Assembly (NCBI RefSeq): GCF_000215935.2
Contig: NZ_AFNU02000001.1
Coordinates: forward strand, 496,001 to 560,000
DNA length: 64,000 nucleotides
Direction: 5' to 3'
Origin: Haloplasma contractile SSD-17B
GTDB lineage: Bacteria; Bacillota_I; Bacilli_A; Haloplasmatales; Haloplasmataceae
The notes under the pieces are model-generated. The model had not been told where the DNA came from. It made no database searches and was given only the letters and a program-made list of their open reading frames with translations. Position numbers and translations under genes: made by a program. Below, piece by piece: positions 52,476-60,316 of the stretch (position 1 is the stretch's first letter; every line of letters starts with the position of its first letter).

Positions 52476-52955
52476 TTATTTTGAGAGTTCAGATTTTAAA
52501 TATACATCTATTCTATGCAATTCCCGATATTTTACTTTAGCAGAATCTAACATTCGTTTTGCCGCAACATTTTCTTTTGATCCGTTATATTTATCTTCCA
52601 TATAGATAATTTCTCTTATTCCACTTTGAATAATGAGTTTTGTACACTCATTACATGGGAATAATGTAACGTAAATTCTACAATCTTTTAAAGAAGTAGT
52701 ACTGTTTAAAATTGCATTGGGTTCAGCGTGTACAACATAAGGATATTTTGTGTCTAAAAAGTCACCCTTCCGCTCCCAAGGAAAATCACGATCGTTGCAA
52801 CCTACGGGAAGTCCATTATAACCGATCCCCACAATACGTTTATCAGGGTTGACAATACATGCTCCAACTTGAGTATTCTGGTCTTTACTTCTTAAAGCGG
52901 ATAGTTTTGCCACTCCCATAAAATAATCATCCCAGCTAATGTAGTCTTCTCTCAT
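52476..52955 (-). CDS. dCMP/deoxycytidylate deaminase (ComEB-like)
   Basis: A 159-residue zinc deaminase that makes dUMP from dCMP. Zinc ligands are in VHAEPNAIL (His and catalytic Glu) and FPCNECTK. It starts MREDYISWDDYFMGVA, the standard ComEB opening. AGAGGTG lies six bases before the ATG at 52955, in the same context as at cdd. The next gene downstream on this strand is the YlbL-like protease gene, starting about 35 bases further on. Confidence 0.93.
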   Translation of the reverse strand: MREDYISWDDYFMGVAKLSALRSKDQNTQVGACIVNPDKRIVGIGYNGLPVGCNDRDFPWERKGDFLDTKYPYVVHAEPNAILNSTTSLKDCRIYVTLFPCNECTKLIIQSGIREIIYMEDKYNGSKENVAAKRMLDSAKVKYRELHRIDVYLKSELSK

Positions 52956-53394
52956 TATAAACACCTCTTATATTTCATTGTTATCATGATCGACATAACG
53001 CTAGTCTAATACTAATAGTTACCATATCAGTTTATTTTAAACATGCATATTATATCATATTTTTCCAAACAAGTGAAAAAAACTTTTTAACTGTCTATAA
53101 TGCCCTAGCATTTAGTACGAAATTATAAAGGATTGAGTGAGTTTTATTTTCGTTCCGTTAGTGAAACCTGTTGTCATTACAAATCCAGCAATGCTTGTGT
53201 CAACACAAAGTAGTAAAAGTAATTCTGTACTCTTACGGTTCTATCTTTCAAAATATAAACAAAATTATAAAACTTCATACTCACGATCCTTAATGAATTT
53301 TGGTTAGTAACAGATTGATTACATTATATATCTCAGTTCAATTACATTTGTACAGACCAATACCGTTAATTGGACTTAATCAAGTTAGATCTCA
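52956..53394. other. Intergenic region rnfB-dCMP deaminase
   Basis: About 440 bases downstream of the rnf operon and upstream of the deaminase gene. AT-rich; a short palindrome TTGTGT-CA-ACACAA occurs near 53195-53209. No gene with a ribosome site seen; the deaminase promoter should lie here. Confidence 0.5.
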
Positions 53395-53439
53395 TCAAAA
53401 AAAACTGCCACAAATAGGGCACTCCCCTATCGTGACAGC
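53395..53439 (-). terminator. Terminator of the rnf operon
   Basis: On the minus strand CTGTCACGATAGGG pairs with CCCTATTTGTGGCAG, with a small interior mismatch, and a run of Ts follows. It lies 12 bases after the rnfB stop. Confidence 0.88.
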
Positions 53440-53450
53440 TTAACACTTCA

Positions 53451-54029
53451 TTACTTGTTCATAATGTCGTCGATTTTATCCTTGTTGTCACCTTTTGCTT
53501 TTAAAGGGCGACATTTTTCTAATTGTTGTTCTCCTTTAATTAACTCATCGGCAAATGCCTTACAACCTGGCGAACCACACGTTGTACAGTTGATCCCTGG
53601 TAAAAGTTCAACAATTTTATCAAAGCGTGGATCAGGGTTTGTAACATCCTTTATCTCAGGCTTCTTTCGTTTTGGTTTTGATTTAGCGTCAGCCTTTGCT
53701 GGTGCTTTTTTCTCTTCTTTAACCTCTACACTGTCAGGATCTTCACCATTTAAAATTGCACGAACCTGTGAGTAGTTTAGTTCGGTACCTGGTGTACACT
53801 GTTTAACATCTGCTTCCCCTTCTAAGAGACCATCTGCCATTCCGGCACATCCAGGATAACCACAAGCACCACAGTTAAACCCAGGTAACGCTTCTACTAT
53901 CTGATCAAAACGAGGATCAACCTCTACTTTAAACACTTGACTCGAAATCGCAAGAATCAAACCTAATACGGCTCCAATCCCACCAACGATTCCACCTACT
54001 GCTAAAATTTCCATAACATTAATATCCAT
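53451..54029 (-). CDS. rnfB: RnfB with duplicated iron-sulfur domain and no ferredoxin domain
   Basis: Rnf subunit that takes electrons from ferredoxin. The 192-residue protein has a membrane helix (about 7-30), then an iron-sulfur domain with Cys53, 56, 61, 78 (FNCGACGYPGC), a basic KAPAKADAKSKPKRKK linker, and a second copy with Cys148, 151, 156, 173 (INCTTCGSPGC). Both have the same C-x2-C-x4-C-x16-C spacing and the same lead-in (DPRFDxIVExLPG). The C-terminal ferredoxin domain with C-x2-C-x2-C-x3-C motifs normal in RnfB is absent, and the gene stops before a strong terminator. Last gene of the operon. Confidence 0.88.
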   Translation of the reverse strand: MDINVMEILAVGGIVGGIGAVLGLILAISSQVFKVEVDPRFDQIVEALPGFNCGACGYPGCAGMADGLLEGEADVKQCTPGTELNYSQVRAILNGEDPDSVEVKEEKKAPAKADAKSKPKRKKPEIKDVTNPDPRFDKIVELLPGINCTTCGSPGCKAFADELIKGEQQLEKCRPLKAKGDNKDKIDDIMNK

Positions 54030-54235
54030 TATCTCTCACCTTCTTCTCTACTATTCTCTCTATTCGTCTCGCTATAACTACATGATGATGATGAGCAGTG
54101 TTTACACTTAATTGATGGCAGTTCAAATTGCTCTGGTAATGGGGTCTTCTTATTTAAATACATGCCAAATGCATATAGTGCAACTAAAGCCACTACCAGT
54201 AAGATTGAAATAGCAAATCCTATAATATCATTCAT
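54029..54235 (-). CDS. Small Cys-rich membrane protein inserted in the rnf operon
   Basis: A 68-residue protein, one membrane helix (about 6-26), then Cys44, Cys47 and Cys52 in a C-x2-C-x4-C pattern (KCKHCSSSSC) and a charged tail. The spacing equals the first three cysteines of the RnfB cluster, but no fourth is present. It starts one base after the rnfA stop and its stop overlaps the rnfB start, so translation is tightly coupled. Not a standard Rnf subunit. It may carry or deliver iron, like NqrM for the related Na+-NQR; this is inference by analogy. Confidence 0.75.
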   Translation of the reverse strand: MNDIIGFAISILLVVALVALYAFGMYLNKKTPLPEQFELPSIKCKHCSSSSCSYSETNRENSREEGER

Positions 54236-54236
54236 A

Positions 54237-54836
54237 TTATAACGTAATTATTCCTTGGAATCCCATAAATGCTATTGCCATCAATCCTGCTGTAATTAAA
54301 GCGATTGGAGCTCCTTTGAAGTTTTCTGGAACGTTAGCATAGTTTAAACGTTCTCTTATTGTAGAGAAGATATAAATAACGAGCGTGAATCCAATTGCAC
54401 TTGCTAAACTAAATACGATCATTTCGTCTACCTCATATCCAGCACGAACATTAATTAACGCAACCCCTAAGATTGCACAGTTCGTCGTAATAAGAGGTAA
54501 GAAAATCCCAAGCATCTTATAAATAGCAGGGGCAATCTTCTTAATCGCCATCTCAACAAATTGTACAACTGAAGAGATAACTAAGATAAATACAATGTTC
54601 ACCATAAATGATATATCTAGTGATACTAGTAACGCATCTTCTTTTAATATTAATTCATATAATCCATATGTGATTGTAGATGAAAGTACCATAACGAATA
54701 CAACAGCTACACCCATACCGATCGCAGATTTACTTTTCTTCGACACTCCTAAAAACGGACAAATTCCTAAAAATTGTGCTAGGATAATATTTTGCACTAA
54801 AATTGCAAATATACCTAATGCTAATAAATCACCCAT
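54237..54836 (-). CDS. rnfA: RnfA membrane subunit
   Basis: A 199-residue protein with six membrane helices, of the RnfA/NqrE family. It has NIILAQFLGICPFLG at the start, with the conserved cysteine, and TTNCAILGVAL in the middle, with the second one; these hold an iron centre between RnfA and RnfE inside the membrane. AGAGGAGG precedes the ATG. Follows rnfE by 14 bases. Confidence 0.95.
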   Translation of the reverse strand: MGDLLALGIFAILVQNIILAQFLGICPFLGVSKKSKSAIGMGVAVVFVMVLSSTITYGLYELILKEDALLVSLDISFMVNIVFILVISSVVQFVEMAIKKIAPAIYKMLGIFLPLITTNCAILGVALINVRAGYEVDEMIVFSLASAIGFTLVIYIFSTIRERLNYANVPENFKGAPIALITAGLMAIAFMGFQGIITL

Positions 54837-54850
54837 GAGCTTCGCCTCCT

Positions 54851-55462
54851 CTATTCAGTAGCTTTTTTAGCTTTTTTATTTTTAATTGCATTGATGATCC
54901 CTAATAATAAACCTAGAGTTAAGAATGCACCTGGGGGAGATGCAAAGATACCAGCGGGTTCAATTAAATTAAACGGCTGCATATCAAAACCTAACCATGT
55001 ACCGTTTCCTAATAACTCTCTAAATGTTGCTATTAACATAAGTCCTAAAGTAAATCCAGCTCCCATACCTAATGCATCAATCGCAGAGTTAAGTGGGTTG
55101 TTTTTACTTGCATAAGACTCAGCACGCCCCAATATAATACAGTTAACAATTATTAGAGGGATAAATAATCCTAAACTATCATACAAATCAACCGCAAATG
55201 CGTGCATCGCAAACTCTACCATTGTGACTAACGATGCAATAACTACAATATATGAAGGAATTCGAACCTCATCCGGAACAAAATTTCGAATTAATGAGAT
55301 AATGATATTTGACAAAAGTAATACAACCGTGAATGCGATCCCCATACCAATCGCATTTTCTACTGTGTTTGAAATTGCTAAGGTAGGACACATCCCTAGT
55401 AGTAAAACAAATATAGGGTTTTCTTTTATTATACCTTTAAGAAAGTTTTGCATTTTCGACAT
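54851..55462 (-). CDS. rnfE: RnfE membrane subunit
   Basis: A 203-residue partner of RnfA, with six membrane helices. The conserved cysteines are in LLLGMCPTLAISN and IIVNCIILGRAE. The ATG at 55462 has AGAGGTG six bases upstream. Membrane part of the ion-translocating ferredoxin:NAD oxidoreductase. Confidence 0.95.
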   Translation of the reverse strand: MSKMQNFLKGIIKENPIFVLLLGMCPTLAISNTVENAIGMGIAFTVVLLLSNIIISLIRNFVPDEVRIPSYIVVIASLVTMVEFAMHAFAVDLYDSLGLFIPLIIVNCIILGRAESYASKNNPLNSAIDALGMGAGFTLGLMLIATFRELLGNGTWLGFDMQPFNLIEPAGIFASPPGAFLTLGLLLGIINAIKNKKAKKATE

Positions 55463-55485
55463 ACCGTTCACCTCTCTCCTTTACG

Positions 55486-56097
55486 TTATTCTGCTAACTG
55501 TTCTTTATAGTAATCGAGTGCAACGTCTACACCATTAACGACTGCTTTTGAACTATACGTTGCTCCTGATATTGTATCTAATCCTTTTTCTCCACTGTAA
55601 CCAGCAAATTGTTCATTAAACCATGCGTCAGTTTTACCGCCACCTTCATTAGTCACTTCAAGACCAAATAAAGTAAACAGTGGGTTTGCTTTAGGACCTG
55701 TATTTTCACCTTTAACACGTGTACCGATCCCAGACGTTTCTTGCATATTCAGATACGCAACATCTTTAACCGTACCGTCATTTAATACACCAACTAAAAT
55801 AAATAACGTACCACTATAACTTCCAGGTGCATTCAATTTAATTACGTATCCCTCTTGTTCATCTTGTTGATTAAGTACAGGGAATACAGAATCTATATTT
55901 TCATTATTTATTTCTTCTTCTGTTAAACCAGTTCCAGCTTTATAACCTGTTCCAAATATAGATACAGTTGCTTCATTAACACGGTTTTGTTCAACTTCTG
56001 CAATCGTAGGCTTTAGCGTAAAATACACACCACCAACGATTAATCCACTAAGTAATGAGATGATAAATAAAACAAGCGTTAAGCGAGCGTACTTCAT
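55486..56097 (-). CDS. rnfG: RnfG FMN-binding subunit
   Basis: A 203-residue extracytoplasmic protein with one N-terminal membrane helix and an FMN-binding domain. The FMN is expected to be bonded covalently to the threonine in TISGATYSS. ATG at 56097 overlaps the rnfD stop (TAATG), so it is translationally coupled. An ApbE-type flavin transferase would be needed; none is in the window. Confidence 0.94.
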   Translation of the reverse strand: MKYARLTLVLFIISLLSGLIVGGVYFTLKPTIAEVEQNRVNEATVSIFGTGYKAGTGLTEEEINNENIDSVFPVLNQQDEQEGYVIKLNAPGSYSGTLFILVGVLNDGTVKDVAYLNMQETSGIGTRVKGENTGPKANPLFTLFGLEVTNEGGGKTDAWFNEQFAGYSGEKGLDTISGATYSSKAVVNGVDVALDYYKEQLAE

Positions 56098-57290
56098 TAT
56101 GCTACACCTCCTACAGTAGTTGTAACATAGAATACTAATCCAATAATTAATGCTATTGTGAATCCGTAGAAGATCCATTCTTTCACTCTAATACCACGGT
56201 TTTGAGATGCAAATGCTCCATCGATTAATGGTACAAACATATTCATAATTAAGATTGAGAATAGAACACCTTCAGGATACCCTCCTAGCATACGAATAGC
56301 AAATGTGATAATTGCTAGGTAAGTAGCAAAGATAATTTTACCACGTCTTGTCATAGGGGATGTTACTGGTTCTGTTGCCATAAATACAGCACCGAATAAT
56401 AAACCACCTGTTAATACTTGGAATAATGGATAATAAATTGCTAAGAATTCTAAACCATTAGAGTCAAATCCACCTAATCCACTGATTAAGGCAACAGCCC
56501 ATGACATTAAGAATACAAGTCCTACATAAATAGTAGGAACATACCAGTTAATTGTTTTGCGAAATGCTAAATAAATAGCTGCTAGAATAATCCACCAAGA
56601 TAATCCTTCACCAAGCGCACTTGGATAGAAACCAAGTAAAATATTCCAAAACGATCCAAATTGGTCTATGATTTGACTTAGTGTTGGTAAATAACCAGCA
56701 GTCTCAGATGCTAAGTGTGCAAGCGGTGATGCACTACTGTAACCGTCAGCAATTTGATGATCAGGAATAAAACTTACATAATCAGTTGCTTTTTGAGATA
56801 ATAAGTCAGCCCATGCAATTGTTACGAAAGCTCGTCCTACTAGAGCTGGATTAAATATATTTTGTCCTACTCCACCGAATATCGTTTTCCCTAGAATAAT
56901 CGCAACGAATCCACCAATAAAGACAACATATAACGGTGTATTAATCGGTAATGCTAATGCATAAAGCATCCCTGTTATTGAAGGATAGGTTGTAGCCATT
57001 ATCCTAAACCAACCAGCAAATCCTTCATACTTTTTATCAACAAATCTCCACCATAGTGATTCGGCTAGCAAACAAGATCCTACTGCCACAAAGATCACCA
57101 GTGCAGCTCTGATTGCTACCTCAATACCACTAGAGAATGATAAATTTAGTACAATAGTTGAATATAAAAATTGAAATATAATGGCTACTACAGCCATTGG
57201 ATAGGTCGTAATCGGTAAATCAAACATATAGCTATGCGTAGAACTTCCGCTATGAATATGCGGGTACGCACCACGTTGTATCTTCGCCAT
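56097..57290 (-). CDS. rnfD: RnfD membrane flavin subunit
   Basis: A 397-residue protein with about ten membrane helices, homologous to NqrB. The segment FMATEPVTSPMTRRG holds the threonine used for covalent FMN attachment. FNPALVGRAF is the usual earlier motif. AGAGGAG precedes the ATG. Moves Na+ or H+ with RnfG and RnfA/E; the ion is not readable here. Confidence 0.95.
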   Translation of the reverse strand: MAKIQRGAYPHIHSGSSTHSYMFDLPITTYPMAVVAIIFQFLYSTIVLNLSFSSGIEVAIRAALVIFVAVGSCLLAESLWWRFVDKKYEGFAGWFRIMATTYPSITGMLYALALPINTPLYVVFIGGFVAIILGKTIFGGVGQNIFNPALVGRAFVTIAWADLLSQKATDYVSFIPDHQIADGYSSASPLAHLASETAGYLPTLSQIIDQFGSFWNILLGFYPSALGEGLSWWIILAAIYLAFRKTINWYVPTIYVGLVFLMSWAVALISGLGGFDSNGLEFLAIYYPLFQVLTGGLLFGAVFMATEPVTSPMTRRGKIIFATYLAIITFAIRMLGGYPEGVLFSILIMNMFVPLIDGAFASQNRGIRVKEWIFYGFTIALIIGLVFYVTTTVGGVA

Positions 57291-57362
57291 ATTAATTCTC
57301 CTCTCTGTTAAAAAAATGATTGCCTTTTATGATTAATTAGTTCTAATTCTTCTATCATTTTA

Positions 57363-58751
57363 TTACTTCTTGTTTTTATTCTTTACATTATAGAACATCT
57401 GACCTTTTTTAATTAATTCCGAAACTTGAATATGAGATGGACATACATAGGTACAAGTACCACAATTAATACACGCGTTTATATCATATTTGTCCATTAA
57501 ATCGATATCTTTTGCTTTAGCGGCTTCCTTCAAGGTTGAAGGAACTATGCCTGCAGGACAATGATCAACACAGCTACCACACTTAACACACGGTTGTTCA
57601 TCACGTTCAAAGTGATATGGGTCATGTTCTGTAAAGTGTAATAATCCTAATATTACATCCATAGGCGCTTGGTTTTCATCTAATTCAAAATCATGTATAT
57701 TTGGCAACACTGTAACGCCTGTAACAGTACGTGTGATGACAAAGTCATCTTTACGTAGTGCAACACCTGTCATAGGCCCCCCTGCTATAAAGCGAAGATC
57801 TCCTAAGTCAGTGGCTACTCCACCTGATAATTTAATTACATCAGATGCTTTTGTTCCGATACGAACTAAATAGTTATTCGGACGTACAATCCCTTCACCA
57901 GAAACGGTGATGATCCGCTCAAGAACAGGTTGTCCCTTTCTTACAGCGTTCGAAACATTTACAGCTGTTGTTACATTCTTAACAATCACTCCACACTCTA
58001 CAGGTGAGTCTTCATAAGTACGGTTTAGTGTACGGTATACAACTTGTTTTTCCCACCCTGCTGGATACTGATCTGGTAATAGTTTAATTGTAATATTGCT
58101 GTATGATTTGGAAGCTTGTTTTAAGGCTTTATAAATATCTTTTTTACCTTTTTTGATTGCAATGATTCCGTTGTTTGCTTCTGCTGCCTTCATCATAATA
58201 GTTAAACCATCGATAACGCTTTCAGTCATTTCTAGCATTGTACGATAATCAGCGGTAATATAAGGTTCACATTCAGATCCATTTAAGATTACTGTATCAA
58301 TTGTCTTACTTTGTTCATTGTTTACGAATGTTAGACGTTCAGATACAATACCAGCCTCTGCCATGACTTCTGATAACTGATCCGCATCCATTTGGTCAAT
58401 ATTCTTAATTGGACTAAAGTCATCACTTGGTGTGTCTAAGAAATCATTTTTGATTTTCAAACATTGATAAGGTAATCCTGAATAATGAAATTCCTTTGCA
58501 AAACCAACTACTTCTCCACTTACTGTAGCATGTTTCACAACCGGTAATGTTTTTCCTTTTGTTTTACGAGCAATTTTTTGTCCTAGTTTTACTTTGTCTC
58601 CCTCTTCTACTAAAAGTTCATAGTCGTTACCTTTTATAGAAAGAGGAATATATACGTATTCGGGATTAACAAATTTCTCTGATTCTAACGCAATTGTAGC
58701 GCTTTTATGGCCAGATATTTTTAATCCTTTGGTAGGTTTAAAATGTCTCAT
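57363..58751 (-). CDS. rnfC: RnfC NADH-binding subunit
   Basis: Peripheral subunit where NAD is reduced, 462 residues. It starts with the RnfC barrel-sandwich domain, has the NADH/FMN-binding region (NGSECEPYITADYR, PDQYPAGWEKQ) and two 4Fe-4S motifs near the end, CVKCGSCVDHCP and CINCGTCTYVCP. ATG at 58751 lies nine bases after AAAGGAG. First gene of the rnfCDGEAB operon, the same order as in Clostridium. Confidence 0.96.
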   Translation of the reverse strand: MRHFKPTKGLKISGHKSATIALESEKFVNPEYVYIPLSIKGNDYELLVEEGDKVKLGQKIARKTKGKTLPVVKHATVSGEVVGFAKEFHYSGLPYQCLKIKNDFLDTPSDDFSPIKNIDQMDADQLSEVMAEAGIVSERLTFVNNEQSKTIDTVILNGSECEPYITADYRTMLEMTESVIDGLTIMMKAAEANNGIIAIKKGKKDIYKALKQASKSYSNITIKLLPDQYPAGWEKQVVYRTLNRTYEDSPVECGVIVKNVTTAVNVSNAVRKGQPVLERIITVSGEGIVRPNNYLVRIGTKASDVIKLSGGVATDLGDLRFIAGGPMTGVALRKDDFVITRTVTGVTVLPNIHDFELDENQAPMDVILGLLHFTEHDPYHFERDEQPCVKCGSCVDHCPAGIVPSTLKEAAKAKDIDLMDKYDINACINCGTCTYVCPSHIQVSELIKKGQMFYNVKNKNKK

Positions 58752-58835
58752 CCTATACACTCCTTTTTATTAAATCAATAAAAATGCTTTGTTAAAAAAA
58801 TCAATCATAATGCTTACTCTAAACTATACCTTACA

Positions 58836-58864
58836 ATTATAACTTTATTTCACAAGTTTGTAAA
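58836..58864 (-). promoter_or_regulatory. Probable promoter of the rnf operon
   Basis: TTTACA (58859-58864), a 17-base spacer and TATAAT (58836-58841). Transcription would start near 58829, about 78 bases before the rnfC start. Confidence 0.62.
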
Positions 58865-58959
58865 TAAATGTGGATTTATTCACAATATTAATTATAAAGC
58901 GTTTACAACCTTAATTATACCATATAATAATAAGTTATAATATATGATATATATATATA

Positions 58960-58993
58960 AAGAAAAGAGTAAAACAGATTACTTGTTTTACTC
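58960..58993 (-). terminator. Terminator of the SleL-like gene
   Basis: GAGTAAAACA (58968-58977) and TGTTTTACTC (58984-58993) form a perfect ten-base stem; on the minus strand TTTTCTTT follows. Confidence 0.85.
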
Positions 58994-59029
58994 CTTTTAT
59001 TAGCAAAAGTTGATAAGGTAGTTTGTTTT

Positions 59030-60316
59030 TTATCTCTTTATAACATTGAAATTATCTTCTATTAAAAGCCAGTTTTGTGGGAACGGTAATCCTAATTTCC
59101 AATAACTGACCCCACGTAAGTCTAATTCTTTAACTAAATCAAACTTTGCCTGTATCGAACGTGCATCTTCAAACCAGATGATATGCTCTTTTCCATCATC
59201 GTCAAAATATTCGATAAATGGTGCTTGTGATACGTCATCATATTGAATTGCTGCATTAAACTCATATGCTCTTCTTATTGCTTCTTGTGGACTTATTGCC
59301 TCTGCAAATTCTCCTCCCGGAACAAACGGTAAGGTCCAATCATAACCGTATAAATTCTGTCCTAACATGATTTTATTTGCTGGCATCTCTGATAGTGCAT
59401 ATTTTACAACTTCAGTAACCTCAGGAAGTGGTGATACAGCTCTTGGTGGTCCTCCACTATATCCCCATTCGTAAGTCATTAAAACGACAAAGTCAGCGAT
59501 TTCTCCGTGTGCAGCGTAATCATGAGCTTCATACCAAGCTCCTGCCTGTTCTGCACTAGTTTTAGGTGCTAATGCAGTAGACATTAGAAGTCCCGCATCT
59601 GATATTTGTCGTTTTGCCTTTCTTAAAAATTCATTATAAGCTCCTTTTAACTCTGGTGGCAAAAACTCTAAATCAAAATGTACATCACTAAATCCAACTT
59701 GCTTTGCAGTCTCAACAATGTTGTTAATTAACTTTTCTTGTAGTTCTTCATCCGTTAAAATAATACGTCCCAGTTCTCGACTAAACTGGCCCTCTTCTAA
59801 GTTGGTTATGACCATCATTAATGCGGCATTATTGATTTCTGCTATAAACTTGAAATTATCAAGTGGTGGAGCATTTAATGTTCCATCACGATTGATTTTA
59901 TAACTAAATGGCGCTAAGTAAGTTAAATAGGGAGCCGCTTCTCTTGCAGCCCGTTCAAGTCGTGGACTTACCGTATCACCAAACGGTTCAACATAGGCAT
60001 TAATTTCTGCAGCAGTTCTAGGTCGTGGTGGAATATACAGTTCTAATCCAGGGTAAATTGGTTTATTAAGTGGAATCCGGTACATTTTTGCTAATTCGTT
60101 ACTATTGATTTCCAACTTTTCCGCAATTGTAAATAGTGTATCGCCCGGTTGGACAGTATAAAAGCTTCCTATGATTGGAATAACTAAAGTCTGCCCAACG
60201 ACTAATTGACTAGGGTTTTCTAGTTTATTCGCTCTAATGATATCAGAAACAGTCGTATTATAAAATTGTGCAAGTTCATAGACTGTATCCCCTTTTTCAA
60301 CAATATGTATTTGCAT
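59030..60316 (-). CDS. sleL: LysM-GH18 spore-type peptidoglycan hydrolase (SleL/YaaH-like)
   Basis: A 428-residue protein with two LysM domains (about 3-47 with VEKGDTVYELAQ, and 52-96 with VQPGDTLFTIAEKL) that bind peptidoglycan, then a GH18 domain from about 110 on. The catalytic glutamate is in SDVHFDLEFLPPEL (the DxxDxDxE-type site, here D-x-x-x-D-x-E), with YEWGYSGGPP and YGYDWTLP as further SleL/YdhD-like motifs. Family members are N-acetylglucosaminidases that degrade spore cortex. No signal peptide, as in SleL. ATG at 60316 follows AAAGGAGG. Confidence 0.9.
   Translation of the reverse strand: MQIHIVEKGDTVYELAQFYNTTVSDIIRANKLENPSQLVVGQTLVIPIIGSFYTVQPGDTLFTIAEKLEINSNELAKMYRIPLNKPIYPGLELYIPPRPRTAAEINAYVEPFGDTVSPRLERAAREAAPYLTYLAPFSYKINRDGTLNAPPLDNFKFIAEINNAALMMVITNLEEGQFSRELGRIILTDEELQEKLINNIVETAKQVGFSDVHFDLEFLPPELKGAYNEFLRKAKRQISDAGLLMSTALAPKTSAEQAGAWYEAHDYAAHGEIADFVVLMTYEWGYSGGPPRAVSPLPEVTEVVKYALSEMPANKIMLGQNLYGYDWTLPFVPGGEFAEAISPQEAIRRAYEFNAAIQYDDVSQAPFIEYFDDDGKEHIIWFEDARSIQAKFDLVKELDLRGVSYWKLGLPFPQNWLLIEDNFNVIKR

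What the first reader, a model, noticed from the sequence alone, without database searches (positions are those of the whole stretch)
53451..54029. RnfB with a duplicated ASC-type cluster domain in place of the ferredoxin domain
Both domains have C-x2-C-x4-C-x16-C with the same lead-in DPRFDxIVExLPG. Normal RnfB has one such domain followed by a two-cluster ferredoxin domain with C-x2-C-x2-C-x3-C motifs. Here the ferredoxin part is gone and a terminator follows the stop, so this is not a sequencing frameshift in an obvious way. Electron entry into this Rnf complex would have to be rebuilt.
Basis: partly seen in the sequence, partly recalled or inferred. Interest (0 to 1): 0.66.

Follow-up and report, generated by a model that had tools for sequence, protein, structure and literature searches.

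The report
Short RnfB with duplicated iron-sulfur domain
This bacterium's Rnf sodium pump carries a stripped-down electron-entry subunit in which one small iron-sulfur domain is present twice; stripped-down versions are normal in its relatives and known in Thermotoga, so only the second copy is unusual.

Summary
On the minus strand (53451-54029), a 192-aa RnfB has one membrane helix, two PF04060 (FdI-type) [4Fe-4S] domains with identical C-x2-C-x4-C-x16-C spacing, no ferredoxin domain, and a strong terminator behind it, at the end of a complete rnfC-D-G-E-A-(small ORF)-B operon. It is not a frameshift: three other genomes of the family carry the same architecture, and the second domain is under purifying selection. 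The interpretation needs correcting. Loss of the ferredoxin domain is the rule in this class (111 short against 8 long RnfB rows examined) and is published for Thermotoga maritima, whose Rnf accepts clostridial ferredoxin. The second FdI was therefore added to an already short RnfB. It looks ancestral to the family and lost at least three times. Best explanation, unproven: a lysine-rich, net-positive second FdI on a flexible linker helps acidic ferredoxin dock and hands electrons to FdI-1, which shuttles them to RnfA/E. Possibly of wider interest is the 68-aa ORF between rnfA and rnfB: a membrane helix plus three invariant cysteines, conserved with short RnfB (106 of 111 genomes) and absent with long RnfB (0 of 8).

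The parts
53451..54029 (-). rnfB, 192 aa: TM helix (residues ~5-32), FdI-1 (~39-93), flexible Lys/Pro-rich linker (~95-130), FdI-2 (~134-191)
   Evidence: TIGR01944 104.2 bits, cut-off 68.7; AlphaFold mean pLDDT 87.9
53790..53888 (-). coding stretch of FdI-1 core (PF04060, residues 48-80)
   Evidence: (G000:C1:549790-549888)
53505..53603 (-). coding stretch of FdI-2 core (second PF04060 match, residues 143-175)
   Evidence: G000:C1:549505-549603
53395..53441 (-). intrinsic terminator behind rnfB (stem, then a run of U)
54029..54235 (-). 68-aa ORF: one TM helix, then NKKTPxP and C-x2-C-x4-C; conserved neighbour of short RnfB
54237..54836 (-). rnfA; both Cys ligands of the intramembrane [2Fe-2S] cluster present
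54851..55471 (-). rnfE; both Cys ligands of the intramembrane [2Fe-2S] cluster present
55486..56178 (-). rnfG (FMN-binding; true start probably inside the listed ORF)
56097..57290 (-). rnfD
57363..58760 (-). rnfC (NADH/FMN domain, SLBB, two 4Fe-4S motifs)
58836..58864 (-). promoter-like site upstream of rnfC, 11 of 12 consensus matches (weak evidence: 16 sites found against 27 expected by chance in the region)

Best explanation
It is the RnfB subunit of a complete Rnf complex of the short-RnfB kind, with a second FdI domain added in the ancestor of the Haloplasmataceae-like family. Proposed working: reduced acidic ferredoxin docks on the lysine-rich, net-positive linker and FdI-2. Its [4Fe-4S] cluster takes the electron and passes it to the cluster of FdI-1, the ordinary mobile shuttle domain, which carries it to the [2Fe-2S] cluster between RnfA and RnfE, and from there through RnfG, RnfD and RnfC to NAD+. 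FdI-2 is thus an auxiliary, dispensable receiver and not a full replacement of the ferredoxin domains. Shown here: architecture, operon, ligand conservation, selection, distribution, charge. Inferred: that FdI-2 binds a cluster, that it binds ferredoxin, and the order of electron transfer.
For: All four Cys of FdI-2 are kept in 4 of 4 tandem proteins. dN/dS of FdI-2 is 0.05-0.28 over 6 pairs, against 0.06-0.12 over 10 pairs for FdI-1 (several dS values are saturated). AlphaFold gives both copies a similar helix pattern with high confidence and a low-confidence linker. FdI-1 matches the mobile domain of solved RnfBs (9eri_B E 3.3e-24, 7zc6_B 1.4e-22, 8ahx_B 2.4e-17). Net charge: FdI-1 is -7 to -2 in 7 of 7 family members aligned, FdI-2 is +1 to +4 in 4 of 4. 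Of four small ferredoxin-like ORFs taken from the own genome, two are strongly acidic (net -11 and -12) and two are near neutral (-1, -2). In A. woodii the Lys/Arg-rich C-terminal end of RnfB is proposed as a 'fishing hook' for ferredoxin (PMC11889175, passages). A single-FdI Rnf already takes electrons from ferredoxin (T. maritima, PMC7414866, passages), so an extra receiver is compatible. RnfA/RnfE ligand Cys are intact.
Against: FdI-2 appears to have been lost at least three times within 8 family genomes, so it cannot be essential. The charge contrast is small, and outside the family FdI-1 is not always acidic (of all 26 aligned, 23 negative, 1 neutral, 2 positive). A hydrogenase-type FeS domain of the same genome is also +2. 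Four related sequences are few. No cluster, docking or kinetics was measured.
Confidence: 0.42

Rival explanations
1. FdI-2 is off the main electron path: a second, interchangeable copy of the shuttle or a structural or assembly element that keeps a cluster but adds little, tolerated and often lost.
For: Loss at least three times in the family; single-FdI relatives keep the whole operon; T. maritima needs only one FdI.
Against: Purifying selection about as strong as on FdI-1; conserved NCTTCG.PGCKAFAD.L.KG motif distinct from FdI-1.
Confidence: 0.28
2. FdI-2 connects Rnf to another partner than soluble ferredoxin, for example the hydrogenase-like Fer4/FeS proteins of the genome (C16 426 aa, C3 577 aa), giving a second electron entry.
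For: FdI-2 is somewhat more like the hydrogenase-type FeS domain than FdI-1 is in its CGxPxCkAfA stretch; in the order, hits of residues 125-190 alone (outside the family's RnfB) are to such proteins.
Against: Identity to family FdI-1 (40-52 %) is at least as high as to the hydrogenase-type domains extracted (40 % at most), and the DPRF lead-in is shared only with FdI-1; those genes lie on other contigs.
Confidence: 0.15
3. The 68-aa TM-Cys protein, together with FdI, forms the ferredoxin-docking or cluster-bearing input of short-RnfB complexes, or inserts the [2Fe-2S] of RnfA/E as NqrM is thought to do in NQR; FdI-2 is a side issue.
For: Found in 106 of 111 short-RnfB genomes and 0 of 8 long-RnfB genomes of the class sample; lies between rnfA and rnfB in 24 of 28 short-type loci; three Cys invariant in 23 of 23. 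NqrM's role: PMC12174285, passages.
Against: No Pfam or NCBIfam match above cut-off; some genomes keep the gene away from rnf; a Lachnospiraceae short-RnfB operon lacks it; if it only matured the RnfA/E cluster, long-RnfB complexes should need it too.
Confidence: 0.12
4. Sequencing or assembly artefact (frameshift, deletion, chimaera).
For: None found for this gene.
Against: Same architecture in three other genomes; terminator right behind the stop; purifying selection.
Confidence: 0.02

Closest known systems
Thermotoga maritima RnfB (short RnfB, 10.56 kDa)
   Same: TM helix plus one FdI-type [4Fe-4S] domain, no polyferredoxin part, last gene of a rnfCDGEAB operon
   Different: One FdI instead of two; no small ORF between rnfA and rnfB is mentioned in the passages read
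Single-FdI RnfB of class Bacilli lineages and of family members G002, G003, G005, G007
   Same: Same TM, same FdI-1, same operon with the small TM-Cys ORF
   Different: No linker plus FdI-2; G003 and G005 keep a short Lys/Pro tail where the linker begins
RnfB of Acetobacterium woodii (9eri_B), Clostridium tetanomorphum (7zc6_B), Azotobacter vinelandii (8ahx_B)
   Same: TM helix and the mobile FdI (B8) domain, homologous to FdI-1
   Different: They carry two to seven further [4Fe-4S] clusters in C-terminal ferredoxin domains; here these are absent and a second FdI is present
N-terminal [4Fe-4S] domain of corrinoid/iron-sulfur protein (CFeSP/AcsC)
   Same: Fold and Cys pattern of FdI (VIA-align Z 7 to 8, 54-57 residues; sequence E 3e-7)
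   Different: Part of a soluble corrinoid protein, single copy
NqrM (DUF539), for the neighbouring 68-aa protein only
   Same: Small membrane-bound protein encoded in the operon of a related pump
   Different: No sequence match found; different pump; function of the 68-aa protein untested. NqrM's helix and Cys pattern are recalled, not compared here

Membership tests
RnfB (TIGR01944) | Score above the curated cut-off | tested here: met
   104.2 bits against 68.7
RnfB (TIGR01944) | N-terminal TM helix followed by an FdI-type CxxCx4Cx16C domain | tested here: met
RnfB (TIGR01944) | Gene inside a complete rnf operon | tested here: met
   rnfC, D, G, E, A by Pfam and NCBIfam; rnfG and rnfD score below their NCBIfam cut-offs but are best matches
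Long (canonical) RnfB | C-terminal ferredoxin domain(s) with further 4Fe-4S clusters | tested here: not met
   No Fer4 family in the protein
Short RnfB of the T. maritima kind | TM plus FdI only, no ferredoxin domain | tested here: met
   published comparison in PMC7414866; T. maritima sequence itself not aligned here
Short RnfB of the T. maritima kind | Exactly one FdI | tested here: not met
   Two PF04060 matches
Functional Rnf | Four Cys of RnfA/RnfE for the intramembrane [2Fe-2S] | tested here: met
   13 of 13 genomes shown
Functional Rnf | Ferredoxin:NAD oxidoreductase and ion transport | not testable with these tools
   needs biochemistry
NqrM (PF04400), for the 68-aa ORF | Match to the family profile | tested here: inconclusive
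   PF04400 not among the families listed for 23 members at E up to 1 (25 of 30 families shown); short query; accession recalled
FeoB-associated Cys-rich membrane protein (PF12669), for the 68-aa ORF | Match above cut-off | tested here: inconclusive
   10 of 23 members match at E up to 1, best 0.0018; window protein not among its hits

The most novel reading that the evidence does not exclude
A minimal electron-input module of Rnf exists in the Bacilli: short RnfB plus a co-conserved small membrane protein with a three-Cys motif that acts as a seventh Rnf part (docking site, extra metal centre or cluster-insertion factor), and in the Haloplasmataceae this module was extended by duplicating the shuttle domain into a cationic ferredoxin receiver.
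Probability: 0.25. Interest if true: 0.62.

Novelty: new variant of a known kind. Interest (0 to 1): 0.4.

Why it matters
How ferredoxin hands electrons to Rnf is hard to study in the large RnfBs because the mobile FdI domain is poorly resolved. Short RnfBs, and a natural pair of one-FdI and two-FdI forms in one family, give a small system in which the contribution of each cluster can be tested by removal. The co-conserved small membrane protein, if it belongs to the complex or its assembly, would be a missing part of a widespread energy-conserving pump.

Tried and rejected
Artefact: rejected, because three other genomes have the same architecture. A decayed ferredoxin or FdI-2 behind the stop of the short relatives: frames downstream of rnfB in L009, L010, L011 and L012 show no remnant that I could see in any of three frames (read by eye). 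Origin of FdI-2 from a hydrogenase-type FeS domain: not favoured, but domains of about 48 residues cannot settle it. Of the eight hydrogenase-type loci fetched for this (L123-L130), my pattern extracted only the own-genome one, plus L083, L085 and L004, so this comparison rests on few sequences. Tandem FdI elsewhere: searches of 392 phylum genomes and 395 class genomes listed no other RnfB matching both domains (listings were cut), so it is only not seen. A riboswitch or other RNA family in 52900-60000: none at gathering threshold. Foldseek against PDB gave no match at E <= 0.001; the VIA second look gave CFeSP at Z 7 to 8 and 9eri_B at 6.2 for the FdI-1 part, and only NFeoB rows around Z 4 for the FdI-2 part, so the fold of FdI-2 rests on sequence and prediction.

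A first charge count gave FdI-1 net negative in 29 of 29, but 12 of 41 sources had been dropped by my pattern (11 not extracted, G028 wrong ORF); the repeat on all 26 rows of A2 gave 23 negative, 1 neutral, 2 positive, and that is the figure I use. Paper searches for a truncated RnfB, Haloplasma and Rnf, RnfB in Erysipelotrichi, NqrM and Rnf, short RnfB, Thermotoga RnfB, NqrM or FeoB-associated with Rnf maturation, a small rnf membrane protein and RnfB domain duplication listed no paper that I recognised as describing a tandem-FdI RnfB or the small ORF; the library holds open-licence papers only. Only passages were read of PMC12174285, PMC11889175, PMC9588780, PMC7414866, PMC4014512, PMC8397711 and PMC7761423; the others were seen in listings only.

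Full report
What is there. The finding lies on the minus strand. window:53451-54029:- encodes 192 aa. It matches TIGR01944 (RnfB) at 104.2 bits, cut-off 68.7, and PF04060 twice. AlphaFold on an alignment of 26 relatives gives a long N-terminal helix (5-32), two FdI-like helical domains and a lower-confidence linker around residues 101-130 (mean pLDDT 87.9). The gene ends the operon rnfC-D-G-E-A-(68-aa ORF)-B; all other Rnf subunits are recognised, and the two Cys each in RnfA and RnfE that hold the intramembrane [2Fe-2S] in A. woodii (PMC11889175) are present. A strong terminator follows. The own genome (3.4 Mb, 34 contigs, 98.8 % complete) has four PF04060 matches: the two here, one in a 426-aa Fer4/FeS protein and one in a 577-aa hydrogenase-like protein. 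Hence there is no second RnfB.

Is the missing ferredoxin domain unusual? No. In a sample of 395 genomes of the class, one search printed N-terminal RnfB rows for 119 genomes (the listing was cut; one row per genome used). 112 have a frame under 200 aa and 7 have 265-292 aa. One 'short' row (G231) is a long RnfB cut by the contig end, so 111 short and 8 long. The short ones are mostly 92-130 aa: TM plus one FdI. T. maritima RnfB is described as 10.56 kDa with one predicted cluster, and its membranes reduce NAD+ with clostridial ferredoxin (PMC7414866, passages); PMC9588780 says that it consists only of the FdI domain. The finding's main surprise is thus already explained.

What is unusual: the second FdI. 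In the order, 8 genomes are held; all have RnfB, and 4 carry both domains (G000, G001, G006, G004) while 4 carry one (G002, G003, G005, G007). Named loci place the group with Haloplasma contractile and Haloplasmataceae. Elsewhere no listed RnfB matches both domains. A tree of RnfC+D+E+A for 7 family members and 6 outgroups (G007 left out because its contig breaks; G001 has only E and A) puts G000 first, then G005, then (G004,G002) 100 and (G003,(G006,G001)) 100; the node that joins those two pairs has 73 and the G006-G001 node 69. Trees forcing the tandem forms, or the single forms, into one clade are rejected (AU p below 1e-60). The simplest history is one gain in the family ancestor and at least three losses; independent gains are less likely because FdI-2 sequences are alike (69-90 % identity among themselves). 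No remnant is seen behind the short genes; G003 and G005 keep a Lys/Pro tail that aligns with the start of the linker.

Is FdI-2 alive? Its four Cys are kept in 4 of 4, and dN/dS is 0.05-0.28 over 6 pairs (FdI-1: 0.06-0.12 over 10 pairs). FdI-2 is 40-52 % identical to the FdI-1 of its own protein and at most 40 % to the hydrogenase-type FeS domains extracted, and it shares the DPRF lead-in with FdI-1, which favours internal duplication.

Mechanism. In solved Rnf complexes ferredoxin delivers to the C-terminal clusters of RnfB, and the mobile FdI domain carries the electron to the RnfA/E cluster (PMC11889175, PMC9588780, PMC12174285; passages). In short RnfB, FdI must take electrons from ferredoxin itself (inference). 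In the tandem form FdI-2 is net positive (+1 to +4, 4 of 4), while FdI-1 of the 7 aligned family members is net negative (-2 to -7); the linker is Lys-rich. Two of four small ferredoxin-like ORFs taken from the genome, a 55-aa 2[4Fe-4S] protein and a 62-aa single-cluster one, are -11 and -12; the other two are -1 and -2. The receiver-plus-shuttle model fits these facts, but the loss in half of the family shows that it is optional. Outside the family the charge rule for FdI-1 is not strict (of 26 aligned in all, 2 positive and 1 neutral), and the own hydrogenase-type FeS domain is also +2.

The 68-aa neighbour. Between rnfA and rnfB lies a small protein with one TM helix, an NKKTPxP motif and C-x2-C-x4-C. 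23 such ORFs align with the three Cys invariant; a fourth Cys (xPxxC) is frequent but missing in this window's copy. It sits between A and B in 24 of 28 short-type loci examined. In the class sample a match is found in 184 of 395 genomes: 106 of the 111 short-RnfB genomes and 0 of the 8 long ones (relatedness not corrected). Of the five short exceptions, reading the loci showed a diverged TM-Cys ORF between A and B in G238 (profile E only 0.34) and a piece at the contig end in G234 (E 0.011); G042, G176 and G343 show none next to rnfB. Within families f13 and f5 the listed short-RnfB genomes have it and the long-RnfB genomes do not. Of 14 genomes reached through loci, the 4 with short-RnfB rnf loci of this kind match and the other 10 do not; 6 of those 10 have a long RnfB frame of 269-330 aa. 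A Lachnospiraceae operon with an 84-aa RnfB lacks it. Profiles give only weak, sub-threshold FeoB_associated matches. NqrM, a small membrane protein reported to be needed for inserting the [2Fe-2S] of NQR (PMC12174285), is a functional lead, not a shown relative. I found no paper describing this ORF.

Verdict. True observation. The missing ferredoxin domain is ordinary for the lineage; the tandem FdI is a new variant limited, so far, to 4 genomes of one family; the small ORF is an unexplained companion worth testing.

Noticed in passing
window 54029-54235 (-); 23 aligned copies including other loci: Conserved small TM protein with three invariant Cys between rnfA and rnfB, linked to short RnfB and absent with long RnfB; no named family found.
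   Followed up: partly
L156 4700-4882, L157 4621-4848, L165 4763-5047, L167 4682-4864: In some genomes the small TM-Cys gene stands away from rnf, directly before or near the dCMP-deaminase-like gene, a PDZ-type gene, lspA and an rluD-like gene; in the window the same gene set follows rnfB (52964 down to 49285). Names of the last three are recalled from sequence, not from a profile call.
   Followed up: partly
L144 11122-12978, L145 8861-10363, L152 2320-3825, L155 1412-3616: RnfD ORFs of 501-735 aa, longer than the usual 350-400, in several families of the class; nature of the extra part not examined.
   Followed up: no
L142 2462-6733: An RnfG-matching ORF of 1424 aa, very long for RnfG.
   Followed up: no
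L117 5333-6726 and 6752-7922: In G006 rnfC and rnfD are each split into two ORFs, probably assembly indels; rnfB there is intact.
   Followed up: no
L116 3651-3848: A second copy of the small TM-Cys gene downstream of the rnf operon in G001.
   Followed up: no
L001 1462-2742: 426-aa Fer4 plus C-terminal FeS protein of the own genome beside a PHP-like gene and an ATPase-like regulator gene (names from reading the sequence); similar proteins in family members.
   Followed up: no
L039, L043: Contigs titled Leptotrichiaceae carry short RnfB with the small ORF, as in this class; the titles may be misassigned.
   Followed up: no
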